A DNA stretch of 64,000 nucleotides. Origin: Protula sp. h YS-2021. Lineage: Eukaryota; Annelida; Polychaeta; Sabellida; Serpulidae. The DNA lies in assembly GCA_949752745.1 (NCBI GenBank), contig OX457028.1, positions 23,560,218 through 23,624,217 on the forward strand, given 5' to 3'. Numbering within the stretch: the stretch's first letter is position 1; every line of letters starts with the position of its first letter. Below are positions 35,818 through 38,800 of this stretch, piece by piece. The notes under the pieces were generated by a model. It was not told where the DNA came from. It was given only the letters and a program-made list of their open reading frames with translations, and made no database searches. The position numbers and the translations under genes are program-made.

Positions 35818-38800
35818 CTATGTTTTTTCAGCACGCTTCGGTTTGACTGAAGTCAACATATGGTTTCTGTACTGTACGCTTAGGCCAGTCATCCAGAACT
35901 TTAGCACGGGTCTATCCTCATTTTGAGCACCAACAATTTGGTAAAGTTTCCTCGTATCATCTTCAGATCGGTTCCCGCCAGCCTTGGTGAATTTGAACAA
36001 CACTTTGACCTTACTGTAAATAAAGCAAGGCAGTATTGGCAAGAATTAAACTTGGTCCTAAAAGTTATTGACAAAAATTTGCAGCATTTTGTTGCCGCAC
36101 GCAATTTAGAATTTTAATATCTGCTTATTCAATCGATGACTTATTTATTTAACGTTTCCTTTAATGACTTACTACTGTGAAAAGAAAATTTTATTGAATT
36201 ACTTCCTGAGACAGACCAGGTACTGTTTCACCACGTTGTCGGAATGGAGAGTGAGGAAGTCTGGGGGAAAGGGCTTACTTCATCCACTCCTTGAGATAAA
36301 CGAGGCACTTCCACCACGCTGTTGACCATGAGAGTGGGCCTGTAGGGGCGGGGAAGGTGGGGGGGAGGCGGGGCTTACTTCATGCACTCCTCTAGACAGA
36401 CGAGGCACTGTTCTACCACGCTGTCGGTCATGAGAGTGGGGCAGGGTGAGGGCGGGGCTTACTTCATCCACTCCTCCTTGAGGCAGACAAGGCACTGTTC
36501 TACCACGCTGTCGGTCATGAGAGTGGGGCGGGGTGAGGGCGGGGTTTACTTCATCCACTCCTCCTTGATGCAGACAAGGCACTGTTCTACCACGCTGTCG
36601 GTCATGAGAGTGGGGCAGGGCGGGGCTTGCTTCATCAACTCCTCCTTCAGGCAGACATGGCACTGTTCTACCACGCTGTCGGCCATGAGAGTGGGGCGGG
36701 GTGAGGGCGGGGCTTACTTCATCCACTCCTCCTTGAGGCAGACAAGGCACTGTTCTACCACGCTGTCGGTCATGAGAGTGGGGCGGGGTGAGGGCGGGGC
36801 TTACTTCATCCACTCCTCCTTGAGGCAGACAAGGCACTGTTCTACCACGCTGTCGGTCATGAGAGTGGGGCGGGGTGAGGGCGGGGCTTACTTCATCCAC
36901 TCCTCCTTGAGGCAGACAAGGCACTGTTCTACCACGCTGTCGGCCATGAGAGTGGGGCGGGGTGAGGGCGGGGCTTGCTTCATCAACTCCTCCTTCAGGC
37001 AGACATGGCACTGTTCTACCACGCTGTCGGCCATGAGAGTGGGGCGGGGTGAGGGCGGGGCTTACTTCATCCACTCCTCCTTGAGGCAGGAAAGGCACTG
37101 TTCTACCACGCTGTCGGTCATGAGAGTGGGGCGGGGTGAGGGCGGGGCTTACTTCATCCACTCCTCCTTGAGGCAGACAAGGCACTGTTCTACCAAGCTG
37201 TCGGTCATGAGAGTGGGGCGGGGTGAGGGCGGGGTTTACTTCATCCACTCCTCCTTGAGGCAGACAAGGCACTGTTCTACCACGCTGTCGGTCACGAGAG
37301 TGGGGCGGGGTGAGGGCGGGGCTTACTTCATCCACTCCTCCTTGAGGCAGACAAGGCACTGTTCTACCAAGCTGTCGGTCATGAGAGTGGGGCGGGGTGA
37401 GGGCGGGGTTTACTTCATCCACTCCTCCTTGAGGCAGACAAGGCACTGTTCTACCACGCTGTCGGTCACGAGAGTGGGGCGGGGTGAGGGCGGGGCTTAC
37501 TTCATCCACTCCTCCTTGAGGCAGACAAGGCACTGTTCTACCAAGCTGTCGGTCATGAGAGTGGGGCGGGGTGAGGGCGGGGCTTACTTCATCCACTCCT
37601 CCTTGAGGCAGACAAGGCACTGTTCTACCAAGCTGTCGGTCATGAGAGTGGGGCGGGGCGGGGTGGGGGCGGGGCTGACTTCATCCATTCCTCCTTCAGA
37701 CAGACAAGGCACTGTTTCACCGCGTTGTCGGCAATGAGAGCGGGGCGGGGTGGGGGCGGGGCTTACTTCATCCACTCCTCCTTGAGGCAGACAAGGCACT
37801 GTTCTACCAAGCTGTCGGTCATGAGAGTGGGGCGGGGTGAGGGCGGGGTTTACTTCATCCACTCCTCCTTGAGGCAGACAAGGCACTGTTCTACCACGCT
37901 GTCGGTCACGAGAGTGGGGCGGGGTGAGGGCGGGGCTTACTTCATCCACTCCTCCTTGAGGCAGACAAGACACTGTTCTACCAAGCTGTCGGTCATGAGA
38001 GTGGGGCGGGGTGAGGGCGGGGCTTACTTCATCCACTCCTCCTTGAGGCAGACAAGGCACTGTTCTACCAAGCTGTCGGTCATGAGAGTGGGGCGGGGCG
38101 GGGTGGGGGCGGGGCTGACTTCATCCATTCCTCCTTCAGACAGACAAGGCACTGTTTCACCGCGTTGTCGGCAATGAGAGCGGGGCGGGGTGGGGGCGGG
38201 GCTTACTTCATCAATTCCTACTTCAGGCAGACAAGGCACTGTTCTACCACGCTGTCGGTCATGAGATTGGGGAGGGGCGGGTGGGGGAAGGGCGGGTCTT
38301 ACTTCGTCCATTCCTCTTTCAGGTAGACGAGGCACTGTTCTACCACGCTGTCGGTTATGAGAGTGGGCGGGGCGGGTGGGGGAAGGGGCGGGGCTTACTT
38401 CATCCATTCCTCCTTCAGGCAGACGAGGCACTGTTCTACCACGCTGTCTGCTAGGCTCGCGTTCCGCAGTACGTACTCCATCTTCTCAAGCACGGCCGGG
38501 CCTGCAACACCCAGCACCAGCCCGCATCAATGCTCTTTCACTCTAGAACTACCCCAATGTGGCTGTTACAAGGGGTAGAAGGGTGTTTATGAGCTGGTTA
38601 AAATATAGACAGGTATGTCTTTGTTCCTACCAAAATAAGTTATTTCGATTCATTCCACAGAAGTGTTATGATATACCGCATGTTAATTTTTCCATCTTAT
38701 TACTACGAATTGTAGAAAGGCACTGTACACTATAAATACTATAGAAGAAGCATGTTTAGAAAAAGATTCAAATTAAGCTATCTTATATAATCAATGTCGG

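What the first reader, a model, noticed from the sequence alone, without database searches (positions are those of the whole stretch)
36215..38450. An exon-intron junction of FLCN amplified into about 25 pseudo-exon units
Seen directly: the last 45 nt of coding exon 10, its donor and about 40 nt of flank recur about 25 times at 87 bp within the downstream intron. Most units keep an AG acceptor-like sequence and a GT donor. The 45-nt core is phase 2-2 (ends AA, starts C), so each extra copy spliced in would add N-VVEQCLVCLKEEWM, 15 residues, without breaking the frame. Retention instead reads ATG AAG TAA, a stop. The array could therefore be inert satellite, or a source of FLCN isoforms with a variable number of DENN-domain repeats. 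I know of no described case of this in folliculin.
Basis: partly seen in the sequence, partly recalled or inferred. Interest (0 to 1): 0.9.

Follow-up and report, generated by a model that had tools for sequence, protein, structure and literature searches.

The report
Exon-intron junction minisatellite in folliculin gene
In the folliculin gene of an animal that is probably a segmented worm, the end of one exon together with the start of the following intron is repeated 25 more times in a row, most likely as an inert repeat that would be cut out with the intron, a kind of repeat already described in lancelets.

Summary
The window carries an 11-exon FLCN gene on the minus strand (574 aa; Pfam Folliculin_C). 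Intron 10 holds 25 extra copies of the exon 10 / intron 10 junction, 18 of 25 spacings being 87 bp. Of the 25, 17 keep AG, an open 45-nt core and GT; one core included keeps the frame.

The isoform-bank reading is not supported as the main explanation. In units 1-22 the coding core varies as much as the flank (18 variants in 45 columns against 18 in 42; P 0.34), and 8 of 25 units have lost a site, the length or the frame. Blocks were re-duplicated (434 of 440 bases). Exon 8's junction has a 3-copy array too. Repeats cover 21% of the window, so two of ten donors hit is what chance gives.

Exon-intron boundary minisatellites ('mirages') are known in lancelets (PMC3087553). This is a new member of that kind, in an animal that groups with annelids. 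Pseudo-exon use is untested and remains possible: unit splice sites score like exon 10's own.

The parts
38399..38501 (-). FLCN coding exon 10 (103 nt, phase 1 in, phase 2 out); its last 50 nt are the founding copy of the array
   Evidence: Splice sites read from sequence; frame closes across 11 exons to 574 aa; this part aligns to solved folliculin 6ulg residues 398-574
36014..38398 (-). FLCN intron 10 (2385 nt), which holds the array
36196..38352 (-). 25 extra junction units (last 50 nt of exon 10 + donor + about 37 nt of intron), mostly 87 bp; the three distal units are degenerate and the distal end is approximate
37730..38169 (-). 440-bp higher-order block, first copy (units 3-7)
   Evidence: 434 of 440 bases identical to the next 440
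37290..37729 (-). 440-bp higher-order block, second copy (units 8-12)
36279..36339 (-). 61-nt pseudo-exon with the highest-scoring acceptor of the intron; inclusion would shift the frame and stop at the first codon of exon 11
   Evidence: acceptor 12.6, donor 7.2 by recalled matrix; 5 of 6530 AGs in the window, this one included, score as high; translation; no yTnAy branch motif 14-70 nt upstream
35818..36013 (-). FLCN coding exon 11 with stop codon
39821..40012 (-). Second junction array in the same gene: end of exon 8, its donor GTCAGT and flank, 3 copies of 65 bp (the first is the real exon end)
39957..40070 (-). FLCN coding exon 8
39040..49662 (-). Rest of FLCN: exons 1-9 (49662-49594, 49412-49209, 48684-48538, 42718-42534, 42014-41834, 41326-41203, 40672-40539, 40070-39957, 39307-39040)
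   Evidence: best full-length relative covers 99% at 57% identity

Best explanation
The 25 extra copies of the FLCN exon 10 / intron 10 junction form a mirage-type minisatellite, likely grown by repeated slippage or unequal exchange and likely removed with intron 10 without adding residues to the protein. Shown: the units, their founding copy in exon 10, re-duplicated blocks, a worn distal edge, and equal variation in coding core and non-coding flank. Inferred: a first tandem duplication took the last 50 nt of exon 10, its donor and some intron; mispairing between copies then expanded and homogenised the row, while exon 10 itself stayed under protein constraint. Inferred: exon definition between exon 10's acceptor and the nearest donor keeps the true donor in use, since the array lies wholly on the intron side of it. 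Inferred: occasional cryptic use would give +45 nt or truncated products as noise.
For: Unit structure and copy number. Core and flank about equally variable in units 1-22: 18 variant states in 45 columns against 18 in 42, diversity 0.069 against 0.079, P 0.34; donor +1 to +6 diversity 0.125, above both. Lost AG, GT, length or frame in 8 of 25 units. 434 of 440 identity between neighbouring blocks. Distal units 24 and 25 are 59% and 40% like exon 10's copy, the other 23 are 72-85%. A second array of the same kind at exon 8. A repeat-rich window: 38 merged arrays with period 10 or more, 21% of bases; 2 of 10 donors hit, and at least 2 hits in 52.5% of 5000 random placements. Lancelet globin RT-PCR and Adh3 data suggest such arrays leave normal splicing intact (PMC3087553, passages).
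Against: No RNA of this species was available (best protein match 57%), so splicing is not observed. By recalled matrices the unit sites are as good as exon 10's own, and 16 of 25 units have a yTnAy branch-like motif 27 nt before the AG. 7 of 18 core variants are silent, more than the 18-24% expected; 3 of the 7 are exon 10's own letters, leaving 4 of 15. Third codon positions vary somewhat more than first and second (0.090 against 0.060 and 0.058; significance not tested), and all 3 core differences between exon 10 and the array consensus are silent (my reading), which constraint on exon 10 alone can explain but constraint on units would too.
Confidence: 0.8

Rival explanations
1. The array is a bank of cassette exons: single, non-adjacent 45-nt units are spliced in and give folliculin isoforms with one or more extra copies of N-VVEQCLVCLKEEWM.
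For: 17 of 25 units have AG, 45 nt open in phase, and GT. Acceptors mostly 6.2-6.6 and donors mostly 7.2, like exon 10's 5.8 and 7.2. Branch-like motif at -27 in 16 of 25. Candidate site pairs 25-250 nt apart, pairs across units included, are 17.3 per kb in the array against 1.1 per kb elsewhere on that strand and 3.0 on the other.
Against: No significant constraint on core or sites. A flank of the same letters in shuffled order reaches the same acceptor score in 69% of 5000 trials, so the acceptor comes free with C-richness. Under a uniform background the unit acceptor drops to 4.2 (though exon 10's own drops to 3.1). Adjacent units would leave 42-nt introns, while the shortest FLCN intron is 181 nt. 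0 of 146 fetched folliculins has a second copy of the motif, though none is from this species.
Confidence: 0.12
2. The array creates a truncating exon: the 61-nt pseudo-exon 36339-36279 (or its acceptor alone) is used in part of the transcripts and ends folliculin before its last 64 or so residues, lowering active protein.
For: Best acceptor of the intron, 12.6 against 8.9 for the true exon 11 site (9.4 against 9.7 under a uniform background); in-frame stop at the first codon of exon 11.
Against: No yTnAy motif 14-70 nt upstream, though 2 of the 10 real acceptors lack one within 60 nt too; matrix recalled; no RNA. Loss of the folliculin C-terminus would be costly if common (inference).
Confidence: 0.05
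3. The array or its copy number is an assembly artefact.
For: Near-identical 440-bp blocks could be wrongly multiplied or collapsed; a lancelet mirage appeared aberrantly assembled in a draft genome (PMC3087553).
Against: Units differ by private changes and indels, the spacing varies (81-102 bp), and the distal edge decays; the gene is intact on both sides. Exact copy number stays uncertain.
Confidence: 0.03

Closest known systems
Lancelet 'mirage' minisatellites (Adh3, globins BflGb6 and BflGb9, troponin C, PGBD5)
   Same: Tandem units span an exon-intron boundary, the real boundary is one copy, many but not all units keep AG/GT, inner units are homogenised and edges are not (PMC3087553 passages; PMC3902484 passage).
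   Different: Here the animal groups with annelids and a lancelet clade is rejected (p-AU 0.0116). 25 extra copies of mostly 87 bp, against 6 and 3 units of 150-160 bp in the two BflGb6 haplotypes (Adh3 units: 10-72 bp, copy number not seen); and each intact unit happens to form an in-frame 45-nt pseudo-exon.
Minisatellite with multiple splice donors in human 6-16 (IFI6)
   Same: By title, a minisatellite that supplies several donor sites to an interferon-induced transcript (Turri et al. 1995; only its title seen, in reference lists).
   Different: Recalled: 12-bp units with donors really used. Here use is not shown, and reading on into the array meets a stop at once.
Earthworm metallothionein intron minisatellites and exon 4 duplications absent from transcripts
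   Different: Monomers of about 180 bp in intron 1; the passages seen do not describe repeats that span a junction.
Tandem exon duplication / mutually exclusive exons
   Same: Coding sequence repeated in a row inside an intron.
   Different: Only the last 50 of 103 nt are repeated, without exon 10's own acceptor, and without significant constraint.

Membership tests
Mirage-type (exon-intron boundary) minisatellite | Tandem units that span an exon-intron boundary | tested here: met
   Units hold the last 50 nt of exon 10, donor and intron start
Mirage-type (exon-intron boundary) minisatellite | The genuine boundary is one of the copies and the gene stays intact | tested here: met
   Unit 0 is exon 10's end; 574-aa open FLCN
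Mirage-type (exon-intron boundary) minisatellite | Many but not all units keep AG/GT | tested here: met
   22 of 25 AG, 20 of 25 GT at 45 nt
Mirage-type (exon-intron boundary) minisatellite | Concerted inner units, diverged edges | tested here: met
   Mean pairwise identity 0.94 in units 4-22; distal unit 25 only 0.40 to exon 10's copy; 434/440 block
Mirage-type (exon-intron boundary) minisatellite | Does not disturb regular splicing | not testable with these tools
   No RNA of this species
Mirage-type (exon-intron boundary) minisatellite | Length instability between alleles or cells | not testable with these tools
   One assembly only
Tandem cassette or mutually exclusive exons | Whole exon with its own acceptor repeated | tested here: not met
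   50 of 103 nt repeated; exon 10's acceptor at 38501 not included
Tandem cassette or mutually exclusive exons | Coding copies under protein constraint | tested here: not met
   Core diversity 0.069 against flank 0.079, P 0.34; a weak untested third-position lean exists
Intron gain by AGGT tandem duplication | A new intron inside a formerly unbroken exon | tested here: inconclusive
   The protein aligns to solved folliculin (6ulg) without insert across the junction; intron age was not traced (a human intron at the same place is recalled, not tested)

The most novel reading that the evidence does not exclude
The array is a live bank of ready-made cassette exons: most units already have a branch-like motif, a C-rich tract, AG, 45 in-frame coding nt and the true donor sequence of exon 10, so folliculin isoforms carry variable numbers of extra C-terminal (DENN) segment copies, and minisatellite turnover sets the choice in each individual.
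Probability: 0.1. Interest if true: 0.85.

Novelty: new member of a known kind. Interest (0 to 1): 0.4.

Why it matters
It would carry a repeat class described in lancelets into a protostome, probably an annelid, in a tumour-suppressor gene, with two junctions hit in one gene. It suggests that mirages are what a minisatellite-rich genome makes when arrays start at exon ends, and it gives a natural test of how the splicing machinery picks one of about 20 near-identical donors. If units are ever used, it would show minisatellite turnover creating exons.

Tried and rejected
Lancelet origin: considered once mirages were found in print; rejected by the protein tree (best hits Ridgeia 57% over 99% of the length and nemerteans 55-60%, lancelets 49-53%). 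I named the lancelet group after seeing a first quick tree, which left the window's row unresolved beside the annelids. Excess of arrays on donors: tested and not found (placement unconstrained, so a rough test; only 106 of 1725 FLCN coding bases lie in arrays). Selection on coded units: tested and not found, with the excess of silent variants and the third-position lean told under evidence against. Copies of other exons: none of the remaining 9 exons has any at E 1e-3. Folliculin with repeated motif elsewhere: 0 of the 146 proteins held (26 and the 120 listed of 694; 18 of the 146 lack the motif). Whole-genome search for the unit: not completed, so genome-wide frequency is unknown. Other genes: 2 of 9 open frames sent to Pfam matched. 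Literature: 8 searches; one search found nothing; the original Adh3 paper is not held.

Full report
What is there. The minus strand of the window holds a complete folliculin gene. Eleven coding exons from 49662 to 35818 join in frame to 574 residues. The C-terminal part matches Pfam Folliculin_C (1.1e-38) and solved folliculin (6ulg, 2.1e-39); the best full-length relative covers 99% at 57% identity. Exon 10 (38501-38399) ends ATGAA|GTAAGC and exon 11 begins at 36013.

The array. Intron 10 is 2385 nt against 181-649 nt for eight other introns and 5819 nt for intron 3. After exon 10 come 25 more copies of its last 50 nt with donor and intron start; 18 of 25 spacings are 87 bp. TRF gives 87 x 23.8, 91% matches. 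The array's G+C is 0.60, the rest of the intron 0.29, the window 0.39, exon 10 0.58.

Splice potential. Of 25 units, 22 keep AG, 20 keep GT at 45 nt, 17 keep both with an open frame. With a matrix recalled from memory, unit acceptors that keep AG score 4.6-6.6, mostly 6.2-6.6, as against 0.3-9.8 for the ten real ones; the commonest unit donor equals exon 10's (7.2). Under a uniform background the unit acceptor is 4.2, exon 10's own 3.1 and exon 11's 9.7. A branch-like yTnAy lies 27 nt before the AG in 16 of 25 units; 8 of 10 real acceptors have one within 60 nt. Flanks with letters shuffled reach the same acceptor score in 69% of 5000 trials, so it follows from C-richness. Including one unit adds 15 residues in frame (one unit was joined and read; the peptides of the others are); retention stops at once; the 61-nt pseudo-exon 36339-36279, with the intron's best acceptor, stops at the start of exon 11.

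No clear sign of use as coding sequence. In units 1-22 (exon 10's own copy and the three degenerate distal units left out), 18 variant states fall in 45 core columns and 18 in 42 flank columns. Diversity is 0.069 in the core and 0.079 in the flank (P 0.34 by column permutation); donor positions vary most (0.125). Silent variants are 7 of 18, above the 18-24% expected, or 4 of 15 without the three that are exon 10's own letters. Third codon positions vary somewhat more (0.090 against 0.060 and 0.058), a weak lean that I did not test.

How it grew. Units 3-7 and 8-12 are 434 of 440 identical; a 287-base exact repeat at a two-unit lag (174 bp) also occurs. Unit 1 is closest to exon 10's copy (0.85) and distal units 24 and 25 are worn (0.59, 0.40). 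This is the picture of slippage or unequal exchange with edge decay (inference).

Not alone. The end of exon 8 with its donor is also repeated: 3 copies of 65 bp at 39821-40012. No other FLCN exon has copies. Arrays of period 10 or more cover 21.3% of the window in 38 merged stretches. Two of 10 donors and 0 of 10 acceptors lie inside arrays; random placement gives two or more donor hits in 52.5% of 5000 trials. The phenomenon needs no special cause beyond a repeat-rich stretch of genome.

Whose gene. The protein groups with the siboglinid annelids Ridgeia and Lamellibrachia (bootstrap 92, SH-aLRT 88, not starred by the program; the Lamellibrachia row fills 38% of columns). A wider annelid group with Owenia has support 40/61 only. 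A clade with lancelets is rejected (p-AU 0.0116), a group that I named after a first quick tree that left the row unresolved.

What is known. I read passages of three papers on the point. PMC3087553 describes tandem duplications of exon-intron boundaries in lancelet globin genes, reports that Adh3 has them too under the name mirages, says that RT-PCR suggests normal splicing, and notes length instability. PMC3902484 adds PGBD5 and troponin C. PMC12783039 reports intronic minisatellites and exon duplicates absent from the final transcript in earthworm metallothionein genes. Two more papers were opened only for a reference to the human 6-16 minisatellite. A search for folliculin with tandem repeat and intron gave 4 papers, none of which by its listing is about this. 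Searches with mirage terms gave two lancelet papers, one of these again, and, of 47 papers with 15 listed, no further relevant title.

Verdict. A real and striking array, best read as a mirage-type minisatellite in a genome on the annelid side: a new member of a known kind. Pseudo-exon use is unproven but cheap to test.

Noticed in passing
39821-40012: Second exon-donor junction array in FLCN (end of exon 8, 65 bp x 3).
   Followed up: yes
36279-36339: 61-nt pseudo-exon with the strongest acceptor of intron 10; would truncate folliculin at the start of exon 11.
   Followed up: partly
44537-46768: 51-bp arrays (28.6 and 14.5 copies) in FLCN intron 3 with long open frames on both strands, 51 being a multiple of three.
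   Followed up: no
4858-5503 and 47507-48352: Two arrays of about 150 bp (with 295-302-bp higher order) whose consensus units look like reverse complements of each other (by eye).
   Followed up: no
51626-51763 and 52081-52200: 15-bp arrays in opposite orientation about 320 bp apart (GGTGATTACCCCCCC and its complement, by eye).
   Followed up: no
14135-15004: Open frame with a MULE transposase domain (PF10551, 2.9e-8).
   Followed up: partly
27786-28082: Plus-strand open frame with a mitochondrial carrier domain (PF00153, 9.6e-15), probably an exon of a neighbouring gene.
   Followed up: partly
57077-57367: Open frame over a 108-bp x 3 array (36-residue repeats); no Pfam match.
   Followed up: partly
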